34,617 nucleotides of DNA from Prevotellaceae bacterium (GTDB lineage: Bacteria > Bacteroidota > Bacteroidia > Bacteroidales > UBA932): assembly GCA_031254635.1 (NCBI GenBank), contig JAIRUB010000144.1, positions 1 through 34,617 on the forward strand, given 5' to 3'. The notes under the pieces are model-generated. The model made no database searches. It worked only from the letters and a program-made list of their open reading frames with translations, and had not been told where the DNA came from. The translations under genes were made by a program, and so were the position numbers. Below, in pieces: positions 24,568-34,617 of the stretch. Each line of letters starts with the position of its first letter. The first letter of the stretch is position 1.

Positions 24568-25509
24568 ATGTCAGTTGTAAAAAAACTATGTTGCGGTGTC
24601 TTTTTTTTGTTGATGGTTTTCAGCACGAAGGCCCAACAAACGCCTCAATTTAGTTTAGGTTTTTTGAATAGGATGTTTAGCAATCCGGGGTATGCTGGCA
24701 ATACAACAGAAAATCTGTTTACAGCTACGGCGTTAAACCGTTTGGAAATGACCGGTTTTGAAGGCGCGCCAGTAATAACAGTGGTTGACCTTCATGGTCC
24801 GGTTGCGTTGTTTGGAATATCAAGTGGAGTAGGGGTTTCGTTGTATAACGATATGGCAGGCGCCTTGCGCGCTCCTGGTTTTAGTCTTACTTATGCTTAT
24901 CGTCATAAAATTTTTGATGGAACGATAGGCATAGGAGTAACAGCTGGTTTGGTTGCCAGTTGGTATACCAACCAAAATTGGCGATTGCCGGAAGGAGAGG
25001 GTTCAGACCCTTCGGTACCAACCAATGAAATAGCAGGAATGAATTTTGACATGGACTTAGGTGCTTATTATCAGAGTTCTACCTGGTTTGGCGGAGTAGC
25101 TTGCAAGCATCTTACTGAGCCAAGGTTAGGTGTTGATAAAAAGGGCTCATTACCCAGAACTTTATATGCGAATCTTGGCTATGCTTATGCTTTTGATGAG
25201 TCGGAATGGATGATTATGCCAATGGTCGATTTAGTTTCCGATTTTGCACAAACCGGTTTTAGTTTGAAAACTATAGTTTACTACAAAAAAATATACTGGG
25301 CAGGCTTGGCTTATAGATGGAATCAGGCGATAGTAGGCATGTTGGGAATAGAACTATTTGAAGGACTGAAAATAGCCTACGCTTATGAGTACCTGATATC
25401 CGAGTTGAACCGCTTTAGTGGCGGCTGTCATGAGTTGTTGTTAAATTACTCTTTTGCTATAACGATACCGAAAGGTTCGCAACGATACAAGAGTATAAGA
25501 TATTTATAA
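24568..25509 (+). CDS. porP: PorP/SprF-type T9SS outer-membrane protein
   Basis: This 313-residue outer-membrane barrel of the PorP/SprF family is a type IX secretion accessory. The signal peptide is MSVVKKLCCGVFFLLMVFSTKAQ. The mature N terminus QQTPQFSLGFLNRMFSNPGYAG corresponds to the family hallmark 'QDPqfsqYm.nplyyNPAYAG', with a Gly for the usual Ala. The rest alternates as barrel strands (FSLTYAYRHKIFDGTIGIGVTAG, WAGLAYRWNQAIVGMLGI) and ends in LLNYSFAITIPKGSQRYKSIRYL. In Porphyromonas the gene heads the por operon (porP-K-L-M-N), as here, which favours the porP name over one of the many sprF paralogues. gldK follows after 15 bases. Confidence 0.9.
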   Translation: MSVVKKLCCGVFFLLMVFSTKAQQTPQFSLGFLNRMFSNPGYAGNTTENLFTATALNRLEMTGFEGAPVITVVDLHGPVALFGISSGVGVSLYNDMAGALRAPGFSLTYAYRHKIFDGTIGIGVTAGLVASWYTNQNWRLPEGEGSDPSVPTNEIAGMNFDMDLGAYYQSSTWFGGVACKHLTEPRLGVDKKGSLPRTLYANLGYAYAFDESEWMIMPMVDLVSDFAQTGFSLKTIVYYKKIYWAGLAYRWNQAIVGMLGIELFEGLKIAYAYEYLISELNRFSGGCHELLLNYSFAITIPKGSQRYKSIRYL

Positions 25510-26912: not shown

Positions 26913-27710
26913 ATGAAAGATCAAAAAATTCCATTTAATCAGACTAAACAATGGAAAAACCTCATGATGAAACTTTATGGTTTTGGGGCAGCATTAGTGA
27001 TCATTGGAGCTTTGTTTAAACTACAATATTGGCCATATGCCGGAGTAATGTTGGGTCTTGGAATGTTTACGGAATTTTTCGTCTTTATTTTTTCGGCTTT
27101 TGACCCTCCTGCAAAAGAATACGCCTGGGATAAGGTACATCCCGAATTAGCCGATGATGCTGAATTTAATAGCTATCAACCTAAACTGCAACAGGGAATA
27201 GTTTCCGGATCTTTGCAGATTGACCCTAAGCTATCGGGAGAATTGAATAACAGCATGGCCAAACTTAACGATACCGTGAAAAGCTTACACAGCCTTTCGA
27301 CTATGGGCGAGTTGTCGAACAGCTTGCTTGGCGGCATACAACAAGTGGCCGGAAATATAAACAACTTTAACGGTTCGATGGCCACAGTGAATCAATCAAT
27401 GAACGTATTAAAAGATGTCTATCTGCAAATATCACAAGCTATACTTGCCGGCGGTAAACAAACCGGCACGAATCTTGAAGTGTTGAATAAACATCTTTCA
27501 TCGGTAAACGCATCGTATGAATTATACATTCAGGAGCACAAACAGTATGCAGTTTCTTGCGAACAAATGGTGGCTACGATGAAACAATCAGCCGAAAGTT
27601 CCAAACAGGTTGGTGCGCAAATGGATAAGTTGCACACTCAGGTAAATGATTTGAATGTTATCTACGGCTCTATGATATCTACAGCAAATACGGCATTAAA
27701 AAAACGCTAA
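26913..27710 (+). CDS. gldL: T9SS inner-membrane motor protein GldL/PorL
   Basis: GldL pairs with GldM to form the proton-driven motor of the type IX secretion system. The N-terminal region has two membrane helices (LYGFGAALVIIGALFKL at about 21-37 and YAGVMLGLGMFTEFFVFIFSAF at about 42-63). The second helix carries an acidic residue (E54) in the position expected for the conserved motor glutamate (Glu49 in F. johnsoniae GldL). The cytoplasmic tail (residues 90-265) is a long, heptad-like region, for example LSGELNNSMAKLNDTVKSLHSL, likely coiled coil. The 265-aa length fits the family. It has a 47-base leader spacer after gldK and is 3 bases from gldM. Confidence 0.95.
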   Translation: MKDQKIPFNQTKQWKNLMMKLYGFGAALVIIGALFKLQYWPYAGVMLGLGMFTEFFVFIFSAFDPPAKEYAWDKVHPELADDAEFNSYQPKLQQGIVSGSLQIDPKLSGELNNSMAKLNDTVKSLHSLSTMGELSNSLLGGIQQVAGNINNFNGSMATVNQSMNVLKDVYLQISQAILAGGKQTGTNLEVLNKHLSSVNASYELYIQEHKQYAVSCEQMVATMKQSAESSKQVGAQMDKLHTQVNDLNVIYGSMISTANTALKKR

Positions 27711-29280: not shown

Positions 29281-30165
29281 ATGAAAAAGACAATTCTTTT
29301 AACCGCGTTTTTGTTATTTTTTGCAATAGCACAAGCCCAACAAGTGGAAACTGATAAGAAAAGTTTAGTGCTTGATGATGTTGTTAAAAAGGAACAAATA
29401 GAAGAAAAGGAACCTATCCCTTATCCGCTCCTTACGGAGTCTGACATATTCATGAAACGACGAATATGGCGTGTTATTGATCTGCGCGAGCGGATGAATT
29501 ATCCCCTCTATTATCCTATTGAATTGCTGCAAACACGTAAAAGTTTTATACAGGCTCTTATTGGCGGTATAGAAAAAGATAAAATTACAGCCTACGATAC
29601 CGATAGCGACGAGTTTACCTCGGAAATATCGCTTGCCGATATATTGGCTAAATTTGATGCAGCCGACCGTGAAATAACCCGTAAAAATATGGACGACAGG
29701 GATACTACTTATGTCGTAAAAGGTGAAATCAACTGGGGTGAAGTACAGGAATTGCTCGTAAAAGAAGACTGGTTTTTCGATAAACGACACTCGCGCCTTT
29801 ATGTGCGCATTCTTGGTATTTGCCCGATTCGTGTTTACAACAAAGAGTTAAGAACAAACGGAGAGGAGGAGGAAGATATAGAGGGAGAATTGCTTAGACG
29901 CCAATTATTCTGGATTTATTATCCCGATGCTCGCAAACTGTTGGCTAATACTCCATGCTATCTTGGTGGCGACGGCCTTGCCCAGCTGTCATTTGACGAC
30001 TTGTTCCAGAGTCGCCGCTTTTCCTCTTATATTTCGGCTGTGTCAAATGCCCAAGGTAATCGTAGAGTGATATCCTATACCCGTACAGGTATAGAAGCCA
30101 TGCTCGAATCGCAACGCATCGAAAACGAATTAATGAATTTCGAAAGCGACCTTTGGGAATACTAA
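29281..30165 (+). CDS. gldN: T9SS periplasmic ring protein GldN/PorN
   Basis: GldN/PorN partners with GldK/PorK in the outer-membrane-associated ring of the type IX secretion system. The 294-residue protein has a signal peptide (MKKTILLTAFLLFFAIAQAQ) and the conserved core DIFMKRRIWRVIDLRERMNYPLYYP near residue 60, then VKEDWFFDKRHSRLYVRILGICPI and LFWIYYPDARKLLA. The C-terminal part includes LSFDDLFQSRRFSSYI. It is the last gene of the operon; a strong hairpin terminator lies 67 bases after the stop. Confidence 0.95.
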   Translation: MKKTILLTAFLLFFAIAQAQQVETDKKSLVLDDVVKKEQIEEKEPIPYPLLTESDIFMKRRIWRVIDLRERMNYPLYYPIELLQTRKSFIQALIGGIEKDKITAYDTDSDEFTSEISLADILAKFDAADREITRKNMDDRDTTYVVKGEINWGEVQELLVKEDWFFDKRHSRLYVRILGICPIRVYNKELRTNGEEEEDIEGELLRRQLFWIYYPDARKLLANTPCYLGGDGLAQLSFDDLFQSRRFSSYISAVSNAQGNRRVISYTRTGIEAMLESQRIENELMNFESDLWEY

Positions 30166-30231
30166 ATTAAAGTAACTAAGAAATTTAAGAGATTAGAATT
30201 TAAGAAATTAGGGTTCTTTCAAATAACTCAT

Positions 30232-30270
30232 AAAAAGGAGTAAAGATATTTTAAGTCTTTACTCCTTTTT
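30232..30270 (+). terminator. Rho-independent terminator of the T9SS operon
   Basis: AAAAAGGAGTAAAGA (30232-30246) and TCTTTACTCCTTTTT (30256-30270) form a perfect 15-base stem with a 9-base loop, ending in a run of T. The flanking A-run/T-run makes it potentially bidirectional. Confidence 0.9.
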
Positions 30271-30330
30271 CTATAACCCTAATCCCTAAGCTATAACTAA
30301 CTACTCTGTTTACAAATTTTTAACATCTTT

Positions 30331-30375
30331 GTTAAAAATTGTTAAAAAACACTCTGAATTGTTAAATAATGTTAA
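30331..30375. promoter_or_regulatory. Four GTTAA motifs phased on the DNA helix
   Basis: GTTAA begins at 30331, 30341, 30361 and 30371, spacings of exactly 10, 20 and 10 bases, so all face the same side of the helix. An inverted copy (TTAAC) lies at 30320-30324. The cluster ends 38 bases before the -7 element at 30413, the normal distance for an activator array. The factor is unknown. Confidence 0.45.
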
Positions 30376-30412
30376 TTTTTTTTTTAATATAATATATTTA
30401 TTTAAATTTGAC

Positions 30413-30420
30413 TGTTGAAA
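30413..30420 (+). promoter_or_regulatory. -7 promoter element TAAATTTG before the micro-ORF and adhesin locus
   Basis: This is an exact TAnnTTTG match. Transcription would start near 30427, giving a leader of about 190 bases before the 69-aa ORF, with the micro-ORF inside it. Confidence 0.5.
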
Positions 30421-30482
30421 AAGGACGGTTATTTGAGCATCTAATCCGTGTAAACCCGCGTAAAATGTTTAAATTTAACAAA

Positions 30483-30545
30483 ATGACGAATAATTATTAT
30501 GATGCATATAGACTTGCAGACCTTGTACTATTGTTGTTGCTTTAA
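30483..30545 (+). CDS. Leucine-rich 20-residue micro-ORF (possible leader peptide)
   Basis: An ATG at 30483 opens a 20-codon frame ending in TAA, encoding MTNNYYDAYRLADLVLLLLL; six of its last seven codons specify leucine and the other valine. It is too short for the ORF track. It sits between the TAAATTTG promoter and the 69-aa secreted protein, where a leader peptide would lie. No attenuator hairpin is evident directly downstream. It may be a regulatory or membrane-active peptide or a chance ORF. Confidence 0.3.
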   Translation: MTNNYYDAYRLADLVLLLLL

Positions 30546-30618
30546 GTGGCTAAATAATTAAAAATCAGAAGATTAGAAACAAAATTAAGAATTGAAAATT
30601 ATAAAATTATAAACATAT

Positions 30619-30828
30619 ATGAAAAGCGTAAGTTTAAAAATGACAATGATTATATTAGCCTGCATATTGCTGGCAAGTGTAATCGCACACGCCCAGGACG
30701 ATAACAAAAAGGTCCTGGAAGGGGAACGGGTCTTTAAAAGCATATCTTCCTTTGATGGAGAATGGACTCAGGATACTTCTGACAGTAAAACAGGGCAATT
30801 ATCTATTGTAATAACCTTCAGCCGGTAA
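30619..30828 (+). CDS. Small secreted protein upstream of the adhesin
   Basis: This is a 69-residue ORF with a convincing signal peptide (MTMIILACILLASVIAHAQ after MKSVSLK), leaving a mature peptide of about 43 residues beginning DDNKKVLEGERVFKSISS and ending LSIVITFSR. It has no cysteines after the leader and no known motif. The start is the ATG at 30619 (MKSVSLKM); ATG 30640 is an alternative that gives a shorter leader. It lies 40-46 bases upstream of the giant repeat protein on the same strand, so the two are probably co-transcribed. The family is not recognised. Confidence 0.55.
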   Translation: MKSVSLKMTMIILACILLASVIAHAQDDNKKVLEGERVFKSISSFDGEWTQDTSDSKTGQLSIVITFSR

Positions 30829-30874
30829 CTGGCTTTTGAAATATGTATACTAATAAAACCTAAATCGAATGACT

Positions 30875-33800
30875 ATGAAACCTTTTGCTATAATACAAAA
30901 AAGTTTTACACGCTTATTTTCCTTATTGTTAATAGGCATGTTTACAATAACCGGTTTGTTTGCACAACGCCCGGTGGTGAATCATAATATTAGTTCAACC
31001 AGTCTGACTATAGCATCGTCATCCTTTGGCAACGATTACAACATTACACAAAATCCGGGCACAACCAACAACAGGATTGTTGTAAACTCCGGTTACCAGG
31101 GAACCATTACCTTGAGTGGGGTAAACATGACTAGTCCCAATTTTTCGCCTATTGATATTCAGGGGCGGAACAACCAGTCAAATTTAGACCCTGTTACTAA
31201 GGTTGGCATTATTTTGAATGGCCAAAACACGATTAGGTGTTCAAGCGATACCTATTGCGCTATTCAGGTAAACCAGGGAGCGCAGGTGCATTTCAGCGCT
31301 ATTGACCCGAACGACCATAATAGCGGCAAGTTAAATGTATCTACCAGTGCCAGCGGTGGCGGCGCTACAATTGGTAGCCCACATAGCGCTAATCAGGGAT
31401 CTGCAACGATACAATGCTCAACGGGGTCTGCAGGCACGGTAACACGCACGGCCGGAGGGAATATGATTTTTTCCAGTGGAATTATTGACGCTACAGGTTC
31501 ACAACACGGCGCCGGAATTGGCAGCGGATGGTATACCTACTACAATGGGATAATTATTATATATGGAGGTCATGTTACCGCTCGTGGAGGAATACATTCT
31601 GCCGGAATTGGCAGCGGATGCCCGACAGGTCACGGAGTTATCGCTTGTTATGCTCCGAATAGTTCAATAATCGCCCTGCCCCCGGCTACCATTACGGCAA
31701 CCACAGCCCAGACCGTTACCCCTCAGGCGCTTGGCGGAACGGCAAACGTTACCTACTTAAACGACCCAAACAAACCGCTTATCAGGGTATGTACCGAAGA
31801 TTTTGAGCAAGATGCAACCATTTACCTTGACCTTAAGGAAAATGCGAATATAGTAAACATATTTGCCATGCTGGGCATTGACTATGATTTATCCAATGTA
31901 AGACTTGGCAGAACAGATGCTTCGGGATTTTTGAATCTTCGTGGAGAGTTTCAGCAAAATACTACTTTCTATACCGATGCTTCCAGTACCAACCCTGCCC
32001 ACTTAGACCGTCCTTATATGCCCGTTGTAACTACGGTATCGGGATCCTCATCAACAGTGGTGGATATAGTGTTGCCCTTGTTGCTCACAAATATTTCGTT
32101 TACCGATTATCCCTCTACCCCGTTAGAGTTTGGTTATACACCTATGCAAGCCGAGGCTAACGCCTATCGTATAGAAATTAGTTATGACGATGCAGATCCG
32201 ATGCTTAATGTAAGATTCTCCTTACAGGATGGCCTACATTTTTCTCCGCTGAAGTTTTACGCTGCCGATGGTATAACACCCATTTCAGCTCCCACAAGTT
32301 TAACTAAGGGTATGGTGATTTTCATTAGTTGCCCTATTAACAACGGCGAGGATATAGGAAATTATTCAGATGTGCTGCTAATTAACGGCAATTACCAGGG
32401 TGTGGCCTTGCCGGGCTATATCCGCCGTGTAATCCAACAGCGCGTGGTTGTTAACGATAGCTATGCCAACAATCATATTAAGGTAACGGCATCGCCAAGT
32501 TCTTTCACGGTAACTTACCCCTCAACGTATTCGGTGGATCTAACGCTAAACATTGACCATACGGGAACAAGTATTGTTTATGACCCCTTAGATGTGGTTG
32601 CAAAATATTTAATTACTACCGAACCTAATTTTAATTTAGCGCTGGCGGCAAATCCTATCAATGGCCCCAATTGGAGTTTACTGAATATTCCGCAAACTAA
32701 TAATACCAATGCCGCAAAAACCGTATATTTCGAAAATATACCACAGGGTACTTATTACATCCACTGGTACGTTGAATCGGGAGAAGTGTATGCCCATAGC
32801 CTTGATGTTACTGACCCACCTGCCCTTTATGGAGGCTTTGGCCCCTATAGAGATGTTTTGGAGATTTGTGACGGCAAAGGCGTAAGCTTTACGACTGTAC
32901 CAACCGATGGTGGTACGCCAAGCTATCAGTGGTTTAAAAATGGTACGGCTATTCCCGGCGCCACTGCTTCAACTTACTACTATGTCCCTGCAGACGGCGA
33001 TGAGATTTATTGTAGAATGATTTCTACTGTTGCTTGCGCCAGTCCGGCCACTGTGTATTCGCAAGCCATACCTATAAAAGCAACCCCCTCGCCTGTGGTG
33101 AGCCTTGCAGCCTTGCCTTCGGAAGTATGTTCGGGAGGTTCCACAACCTTAACGGCTACAGTTACAGGTAGTACGACAACTGCGATGACTTATACCTGGT
33201 ATCGTGGTGCTACACAGTTGGGAGTAACCACAACAAACACTTATAATTTAAGTTCGCTGACCTTAACAGAGGACTATTCGGTAGCGGTTCTTAATGAGAA
33301 CGGCTGTACGGGCAGCGCTACGGTAACTATAACAGTATACGACTTGCCGGTGGTGAATATATCAGCCAATCCTACCGCTGTCTGTTATGGTGAGGCGTCA
33401 ACCTTGACGGCGACAGTAACAGGTGGTACTACACCATCGATGACGTACACCTGGTACAGAGAGGCGGCACAGTTGGGTACAACAACGGTAAATAGCTATA
33501 ATGTGAGTACGGCCGGCACCTATTTGGTAACGGTATTCAATAGCAATGGTTGTACGGCAACGAGTTCGCCTGTAACAATTACAGTGGTTCCAACTGTGGA
33601 TTTGAGTTCTACTTATTCAGACGTATCGGTTGTTGCCGGAACAGTCATAGGCCCCTTCAATGCAGCGGGCACCTTGACAGGCGCGAGTTGGACTAACAGT
33701 AACACAGCTGTGGGCTTGGGCGCTTCGGGCACCATGCCTATAGGCGCATTTACGGCAACCAATTCAACAAGCGCTCCGATATCGAGTACAGTAACGGTTA

Positions 33801-34617
33801 CACCTTATTATGTATTGAACGGGGAAACTTGTATCGGCACTCCTGCTACCTTTATCATAACAGTAATGCCTGCGAGCGGAATAGTAATTTTACCTGAGGC
33901 ACCGGCTCCTATATGCGTGGGTGGCACGGTAAATTTAGCGCCGAGTACGCCTACCTTGAATTTGGGTGTTTGTACGCTCATTGGCACCAGCGGCACATGG
34001 ACCTTGGATGGCACAGACTTTATACCTCCGCTTACCCTTAATGCTGACGGCACTTATGTCTTAGGATATAGGATTAATACCAGTTGCGGCATCTTCAGTT
34101 CAAATACGGTAACGGTAACGGTAAATGCCTTGCCGGTAGTGAACATAGCGGCCAATTCCCCGACAGTATGTAATGGCGGTTCGTCAACTTTAACAGCAAC
34201 AGTTACCGGTGGTACGACCACAGCAACGACATATACATGGTACAGCGGGGCTACGCAATTGGGTACAACAACAGTAAATGATTATAATTTAAGCCCGGTA
34301 ACGGCAACAGCAGCCTATTCTGTTACGGTAATAAACAGCAATGGTTGTACGGCAACGAGTTCGCCTGTAACAATTACGGTACATGATGTACCATCGGTAG
34401 GAGACTTGACTGTTCCTTCCGCCTTGTGTTCGGGCGATCAGCTGGATGTTCCTGTTCCAACGGTTCAAGATAATGGTACAGTGATAACCGATGAGTTTTG
34501 GACCTTTGGCGGCAGTATAATAACCATGCCCTACACCGTAGCGTATAGTGAGGATGGCAATATTTTATATTACAGTGCTGTTAATGCTTGCGGCACTACC
34601 CCCTCTGCCACGGTAGC
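30875..34617 (+). CDS. Large secreted repeat/adhesin-like protein, 3' end outside window
   Basis: This frame is absent from the ORF track because it has no stop before the window end: ATG 30875 (or 30869, ATGACTATG) opens at least 1247 codons. It starts with a signal peptide (SLLLIGMFTITGLFAQ). Residues about 30-300 form a beta-helix-like region with IILNGQNTIRCSSDTYCAI and repeated GAGIGSG motifs about 30 residues apart. A long beta-rich region follows. From about residue 664 there are Ig-like modules: EICDGKGVSFTTVPTDGG, PVVSLAALPSEVCSGGSTT, PVVNISANPTAVCYGEAST and PVVNIAANSPTVCNGGSST, each with a TYTWY or YQWF core. Such proteins usually end in a C-terminal T9SS sorting domain, which is not visible here. 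The 33808..34053 minus ORF is its shadow. Confidence 0.88.
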   Translation, partial: MKPFAIIQKSFTRLFSLLLIGMFTITGLFAQRPVVNHNISSTSLTIASSSFGNDYNITQNPGTTNNRIVVNSGYQGTITLSGVNMTSPNFSPIDIQGRNNQSNLDPVTKVGIILNGQNTIRCSSDTYCAIQVNQGAQVHFSAIDPNDHNSGKLNVSTSASGGGATIGSPHSANQGSATIQCSTGSAGTVTRTAGGNMIFSSGIIDATGSQHGAGIGSGWYTYYNGIIIIYGGHVTARGGIHSAGIGSGCPTGHGVIACYAPNSSIIALPPATITATTAQTVTPQALGGTANVTYLNDPNKPLIRVCTEDFEQDATIYLDLKENANIVNIFAMLGIDYDLSNVRLGRTDASGFLNLRGEFQQNTTFYTDASSTNPAHLDRPYMPVVTTVSGSSSTVVDIVLPLLLTNISFTDYPSTPLEFGYTPMQAEANAYRIEISYDDADPMLNVRFSLQDGLHFSPLKFYAADGITPISAPTSLTKGMVIFISCPINNGEDIGNYSDVLLINGNYQGVALPGYIRRVIQQRVVVNDSYANNHIKVTASPSSFTVTYPSTYSVDLTLNIDHTGTSIVYDPLDVVAKYLITTEPNFNLALAANPINGPNWSLLNIPQTNNTNAAKTVYFENIPQGTYYIHWYVESGEVYAHSLDVTDPPALYGGFGPYRDVLEICDGKGVSFTTVPTDGGTPSYQWFKNGTAIPGATASTYYYVPADGDEIYCRMISTVACASPATVYSQAIPIKATPSPVVSLAALPSEVCSGGSTTLTATVTGSTTTAMTYTWYRGATQLGVTTTNTYNLSSLTLTEDYSVAVLNENGCTGSATVTITVYDLPVVNISANPTAVCYGEASTLTATVTGGTTPSMTYTWYREAAQLGTTTVNSYNVSTAGTYLVTVFNSNGCTATSSPVTITVVPTVDLSSTYSDVSVVAGTVIGPFNAAGTLTGASWTNSNTAVGLGASGTMPIGAFTATNSTSAPISSTVTVTPYYVLNGETCIGTPATFIITVMPASGIVILPEAPAPICVGGTVNLAPSTPTLNLGVCTLIGTSGTWTLDGTDFIPPLTLNADGTYVLGYRINTSCGIFSSNTVTVTVNALPVVNIAANSPTVCNGGSSTLTATVTGGTTTATTYTWYSGATQLGTTTVNDYNLSPVTATAAYSVTVINSNGCTATSSPVTITVHDVPSVGDLTVPSALCSGDQLDVPVPTVQDNGTVITDEFWTFGGSIITMPYTVAYSEDGNILYYSAVNACGTTPSATV
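31511..31620 (+). repeat. 20-nt exact direct repeat, 90 nt apart, encoding AGIGSG
   Basis: GCCGGAATTGGCAGCGGATG occurs at 31511-31530 and 31601-31620. The 90-base offset equals 30 codons, marking a 30-residue structural repeat in the adhesin. A diverged copy (GATIGS) is encoded near 31360-31377. Confidence 0.8.
33542..34377 (+). repeat. 41-nt exact direct repeat in Ig-like modules of the adhesin
   Basis: An identical 41-base segment beginning AGCAATGGTTGTACGG lies at 33542-33582 and 34337-34377, coding for the module end SNGCTATSSPVTIT. Flanking DNA is similar but diverged, for example the module starts near 33345 and 34129. This nucleotide identity points to recent duplication or gene conversion between modules. 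Confidence 0.85.

What the first reader, a model, noticed from the sequence alone, without database searches (positions are those of the whole stretch)
30875..34617. Giant adhesin-like repeat gene next to the T9SS operon, missed by the ORF track
An open frame of at least 1247 codons with a signal peptide, a GAGIGSG beta-helix-like region and at least four Ig-like modules starts 710 bases after gldN on the same strand. It is a natural candidate substrate for the neighbouring secretion machine, encoded beside it rather than dispersed as most T9SS cargo is.
Basis: partly seen in the sequence, partly recalled or inferred. Interest (0 to 1): 0.6.

Follow-up and report, generated by a model that had tools for sequence, protein, structure and literature searches.

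The report
Giant surface adhesin gene beside T9SS
In a probable insect-gut Bacteroidales bacterium, a very long gene for a repetitive cell-surface protein lies just after the genes of a protein-export machine (T9SS), and a complete relative of that protein carries the export tag for such a machine, so this is most likely ordinary cargo of that machine, a new member of a known kind.

Summary
The open frame is real: ATG at 30869 or 30875, 1249/1247 codons, 710 bases after gldN, with a chance of about 4e-30 of staying open. The contig ends inside it, so its C-terminus is not available. It has a signal-peptide-like start, a ~630-residue conserved all-beta region with a GAGIGSG beta-helix-like stretch, and at least six Ig-like modules (three pass as Ig_7/PF19081). 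Homologues (51-57% identical) occur in a congener, a Tannerella MAG and a Dysgonomonas MAG. The only complete full-size one (Dysgonomonas sp. UBA7710, 1427 aa) ends in a T9SS type A sorting domain above the NCBIfam cut-off. In one congener the orthologue also lies directly after gldN; in a second, an unrelated giant Ig-array gene follows gldN-manC; most other genera read lack one. It is not part of the gld operon: a terminator-like hairpin and its own promoter lie between. That promoter has four TGTTAA boxes in helical phase; in this genus every such array stands before a giant repeat gene or a T9SS sorting-domain gene. New member of a known kind; the shared promoter array is the least expected part.

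The parts
24568..25509 (+). PorP/SprF-like outer-membrane protein, first gene of the T9SS core operon
   Evidence: PF11751 175 bits
25525..26865 (+). GldK-like lipoprotein (FGE-sulfatase fold)
   Evidence: PF03781 172 bits; position in operon
26913..27710 (+). GldL
   Evidence: PF22827 93 bits
27714..29276 (+). GldM
   Evidence: four GldM domains
29281..30165 (+). GldN
   Evidence: PF19841 227 bits
30232..30270 (+). terminator-like hairpin that closes the gld operon
   Evidence: 16-bp stem with U-rich 3' arm, -19.2 kcal/mol, z -6.5; the simple terminator scan did not list it
30330..30375 (+). promoter array: four TGTTAA boxes at 0/10/30/40
   Evidence: 0 of 20000 first-order Markov shuffles of 30166-30868 hold it
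30403..30410 (+). TAAATTTG, matches the Bacteroidetes -7 element TAnnTTTG (consensus from own knowledge)
   Evidence: sequence; TA..TTT-type boxes at a similar distance after the other arrays
30619..30828 (+). small signal-peptide ORF (69 aa), possibly a shortened copy of the small calycin-like protein that precedes several giant genes
   Evidence: 14-25% identity to the others in the alignment, no Pfam hit; weak
30869..34615 (+). giant repeat surface protein, 3'-open; start ATG 30869 or 30875
30875..32866 (+). signal peptide and conserved all-beta N-terminal region (664 aa) with GAGIGSG beta-helix-like repeats
   Evidence: alignment of five homologues, 51-57% identity; AlphaFold pLDDT 68
32867..34615 (+). 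array of Ig-like modules, three of them Ig_7
   Evidence: PF19081

Best explanation
The gene encodes a large cell-surface adhesin-type protein that leaves the cell in two steps. A Sec signal peptide takes it to the periplasm, and a C-terminal sorting domain, encoded beyond the contig end, takes it through the T9SS whose core genes lie just upstream. Residues 30-650 form a conserved all-beta region, likely the binding head; the Ig_7 array that follows is a stalk. The gene is transcribed on its own from a promoter with four helically phased TGTTAA boxes, shared with other T9SS cargo genes of this genus, so one unidentified regulator probably switches on several surface proteins together. Shown: the frame, the domains, the homologues, the sorting domain of the complete homologue, the promoter array and which genes it precedes. 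Inferred: the sorting domain of this copy, export by T9SS, adhesion, and the regulator.
For: Frame and domains. Homologues found by the N-terminal region in two copies of the congener Th196P3bin81 (= G024), in Tannerella sp. Pmx449_bin3 and in Dysgonomonas sp. UBA7710. The complete Dysgonomonas homologue has TIGR04183 at residues 1364-1425, 30.4 bits against a cut-off of 23. Congener G024 has the orthologue 328 bases after gldN. Arrays precede G024 genes with type B (C3, C5) and type A (C9) sorting domains. G000 has 8 type A and 3 type B sorting domains, so cargo export is in use. In the termite ectosymbiont Synergitannerella mixotrichae, 51 of 56 Ig-like proteins carry both a signal peptide and T9SS C-terminal motifs (PMC12483993).
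Against: The C-terminus of this copy cannot be read. The PF18962 score of the Dysgonomonas homologue (23.1) is under Pfam's own cut-off of 27. Five tandem genes of the same genome, one of them (C232a, 59% identical to residues 481-663 of this protein) behind a similar array, end in a PSVTISGVPD-like tail with no known sorting domain. The Dysgonomonas and Tannerella homologues have no TGTTAA array. No experiment on binding exists.
Confidence: 0.74

Rival explanations
1. The gene belongs with the CTD-less tandem family of contigs C232/C126: a secreted Ig-array protein that ends after an Ig-like module with the tail PSVTISGVPD and is exported or anchored by another signal.
For: C232a shares residues 481-663 of this protein at 59% identity and ends in VPD; C126d stands behind the same array and ends in VPD; the tail is kept in the orthologue G024:C13.
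Against: The tail is confined to one tandem locus and its orthologue. The only complete full-size homologue has a type A sorting domain.
Confidence: 0.15
2. The reading frame stops soon after the contig end and the gene is a decaying fragment.
For: The small ORF before it is shorter than its relatives; giant Ig genes are often split in this genome.
Against: 1249 codons are open without a flaw, and the congener orthologue and paralogue are also open to their contig ends (853 and 1919 codons).
Confidence: 0.08
3. It is a gliding-motility adhesin of the SprB kind (type B sorting domain with a dedicated SprF partner), moved by the GldLM motor (a special case of T9SS cargo).
For: Giant repetitive Ig_7 protein next to gldKLMN; type B giants with a PorP/SprF neighbour exist in this genome (C220, C224).
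Against: The only PorP/SprF in the window is the first gene of the core operon; the complete homologue is type A, not B; no gliding-specific genes were sought.
Confidence: 0.1

Closest known systems
Ig-like proteins with T9SS sorting motifs in termite-gut Tannerella-like ectosymbionts (Synergitannerella mixotrichae, PMC12483993)
   Same: Bacteroidales of the insect gut; signal peptide, Ig-like domains, predicted T9SS export and adhesin role
   Different: C-terminus of this gene not seen; here one such gene lies next to gldN
SprB of Flavobacterium johnsoniae (type B cargo, SprF partner; PMC9143113)
   Same: very large repetitive surface protein linked to Gld/T9SS machinery
   Different: no dedicated SprF seen beside it; homologue has a type A ending; no evidence of gliding
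Dysgonomonas sp. UBA7710 1427-aa protein (L187:9941-14224)
   Same: same N-terminal 640 residues (57% identity), small calycin-like gene before it
   Different: few Ig modules, type A sorting domain, no gld genes in the 22 kb held, no TGTTAA array

Membership tests
T9SS substrate (type A, B or C) | Sec signal peptide | tested here: met
   Read by eye only: KSFTR followed by a hydrophobic stretch and ..LFAQ; no signal-peptide program was run
T9SS substrate (type A, B or C) | C-terminal sorting domain in this protein | not testable with these tools
   the contig ends inside the gene; no contig end read in the same bin overlaps it
T9SS substrate (type A, B or C) | sorting domain in complete homologues | tested here: met
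   TIGR04183 30.4 bits (cut-off 23) in L187, the one complete full-size homologue; type C model NF033708 32.6 bits, below its cut-off of 40
T9SS substrate (type A, B or C) | genome encodes a T9SS | tested here: met
   PorP, GldK-like, GldL, GldM, GldN in the window; SprA/Sov and PorV not searched
Ig_7 (PF19081, CHU_C-associated Ig-like) protein | Ig_7 domains above the gathering score | tested here: met
   67.8 bits, three stretches
SprB-type gliding adhesin | type B sorting domain with an adjacent cognate SprF | tested here: inconclusive
   3' end and downstream gene unknown; the complete homologue is type A
Beta helix repeat protein (PF18889) | score above gathering | tested here: not met
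   20.1 bits against 27

The most novel reading that the evidence does not exclude
In this insect-gut genus a single regulator, through a helically phased four-box TGTTAA array in front of a TAnnTTTG promoter, controls a set of dispersed T9SS surface-protein genes, including the one next to gldN. This would be a cargo regulon separate from the PorX/SigP control of the machine known in Porphyromonas.
Probability: 0.5. Interest if true: 0.45.

Novelty: new member of a known kind. Interest (0 to 1): 0.32.

Why it matters
It gives a gene family, with a complete homologue in the genus Dysgonomonas, for what insect-gut Bacteroidales put on their surface through the T9SS. It also gives a promoter signature that may predict further cargo genes without their sorting domains, which is useful because assemblies tend to break inside these repeat genes.

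Tried and rejected
Extending the contig: the window is the whole contig, and no overlapping contig end was found in the bin. Contig C224 (5'-open Ig_7 frame with type B domain and PorP) was considered as the missing 3' part; there is no sequence overlap, and the congeners gave no clear orthologue to decide it. A new sorting signal in the VPD tail: confined to one tandem locus and its orthologue, so not pursued. Solved structures: no sequence match; the fold search gave only generic beta-sandwich matches with TM of at most 0.17 by query length, not informative. Phage tail and Hoc hits in PHROGs are shared Ig-like folds, not phage origin. Rfam: nothing in 30100-30950 above chance. PorX site of P. 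gingivalis, CG(A/C)AAAAA-N5-T(T/A)TCTTTGC (PMC8265659), does not resemble the TGTTAA array. Paper searches for TGTTAA arrays or LytTR control of T9SS in Bacteroidetes found nothing relevant.

Full report
Observation. The frame 30869..34615 (+) is open for 1249 codons and runs off the sequence. Its chance of staying open is about 4e-30, and no other frame of that stretch exceeds 96 codons. The window is the complete contig G000:C72 of a 1.93-Mb, 81% complete genome, so the gene is cut by an assembly end. PorP/SprF, a GldK-like protein, GldL, GldM and GldN lie directly upstream.

Anatomy. After a signal-peptide-like start comes a region of about 630 residues shared with five other places in four genomes. 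These are two copies in the congener G024 (= Bacteroidales bacterium Th196P3bin81; Th196 is the termite Termes hospes, PMC7024585), one each in Tannerella sp. Pmx449_bin3 and Dysgonomonas sp. UBA7710, and a partial copy on G000:C232. Among the full homologues identity to this protein is 51-57%. The predicted structure is all-beta with moderate confidence (pLDDT 68), and solved structures give only generic beta-sandwich matches. Residues 666 onward are Ig-like modules, three scoring as Ig_7, at least six by eye.

C-terminus. It cannot be read here. The congener copies are also cut at contig ends, a hint that such genes break assemblies. The only complete full-size homologue (L187, 1427 aa) ends in a type A T9SS sorting domain above the NCBIfam cut-off, though below Pfam's. 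Other giant Ig_7 proteins of the genus end in type B domains.

Context. Of 150 genomes of the family, 49 have gldN; 41 loci were read downstream. A giant repeat gene follows gldN directly in G024. In G043 (same genus) a non-homologous 4439-codon Ig-array gene follows gldN and a manC on the other strand. G044 of genus g26 has the same layout with another giant gene. Genera g10, g15, g21 and g22 have other genes there. So the adjacency is conserved within the genus, not general.

Transcription. A 16-bp hairpin with a U-rich arm at 30232-30270 (-19.2 kcal/mol, z -6.5) probably closes the gld operon. At 30330-30375 four TGTTAA boxes stand at 0/10/30/40, followed by TAAATTTG at 30403-30410. A genome-pattern search found this array (up to 2 mismatches) at eight places in G000 and G024. 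All eight stand before giant repeat genes, their fragments, or genes with sorting domains: C72, C126 and C232 in G000; C3 (type B), C5 (type B), C9 (type A), C33 and C37 in G024. A ninth, at C13, has one changed spacing. G043 has none, and the few matches in other genera are short tandem repeats or matches at three mismatches. Spacings of 10, 20, 30 and 40 stand far above their neighbours in the distance histogram. The motif was noticed in these loci first, and only then sought in whole genomes, so the link with cargo genes needs an independent test. A single TGTTAA pair also occurs at C186 without an obvious cargo gene examined.

Small partner. A secreted protein of 120-170 aa precedes giant genes in G000:C126 and C220, G024:C5 and C33, L184 and L187. 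A low-depth model of it matches lipocalins and fatty-acid-binding proteins throughout the top 50 (TM 0.3-0.5, best E 1.7e-3), so a calycin barrel is likely but not certain. The window's 69-aa ORF at 30619-30828 is in the same position but only weakly similar.

Mechanism and verdict. Most likely this is a T9SS-exported surface adhesin with a beta-rich head and an Ig stalk, under its own promoter. Export and sorting are inferred from relatives; binding is inferred from architecture. Precedent is strong: in Synergitannerella mixotrichae 51 of 56 Ig-like proteins carry a signal peptide and T9SS motifs (PMC12483993). The finding is a new member of a known kind.

Noticed in passing
window 30330-30410; G000:C126 11587-11632, C232 38598-38643; G024:C3, C5, C9, C33, C37, C13: Helically phased TGTTAA array with a TAnnTTTG-like box, apparently marking surface-protein and T9SS cargo genes of the genus.
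   Followed up: partly
G000 contigs C232 and C126 (L039, L041); G024:C13 (L171): Tandem secreted Ig proteins all end in a PSVTISGVPD-like tail plus stop, with no known sorting domain; the tail is kept in the orthologue of another species, next to the same RND efflux gene.
   Followed up: partly
L187:9467-9898, L184:4292-4792, L167:13858-14310, L170:3878-4363, L040:8189-8665, L041:11054-11464: A small secreted calycin-like protein recurs directly before giant repeat genes.
   Followed up: partly
L039 end and L041 end: Contigs C232 and C126 share a 29-base end overlap and are probably neighbours.
   Followed up: yes
L037:9286-15018: In G024 the N-terminal region is fused in one frame to an IgGFc_binding domain (PF17517); by eye a similar domain lies in a separate gene (C232b) in G000, a fusion or fission between species.
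   Followed up: partly
G043:C73 2472-15791 (L094, L164): A 4439-codon Ig-array gene near gldN that is unrelated in its N-terminus; a 2-N gap lies near its 3' end.
   Followed up: no
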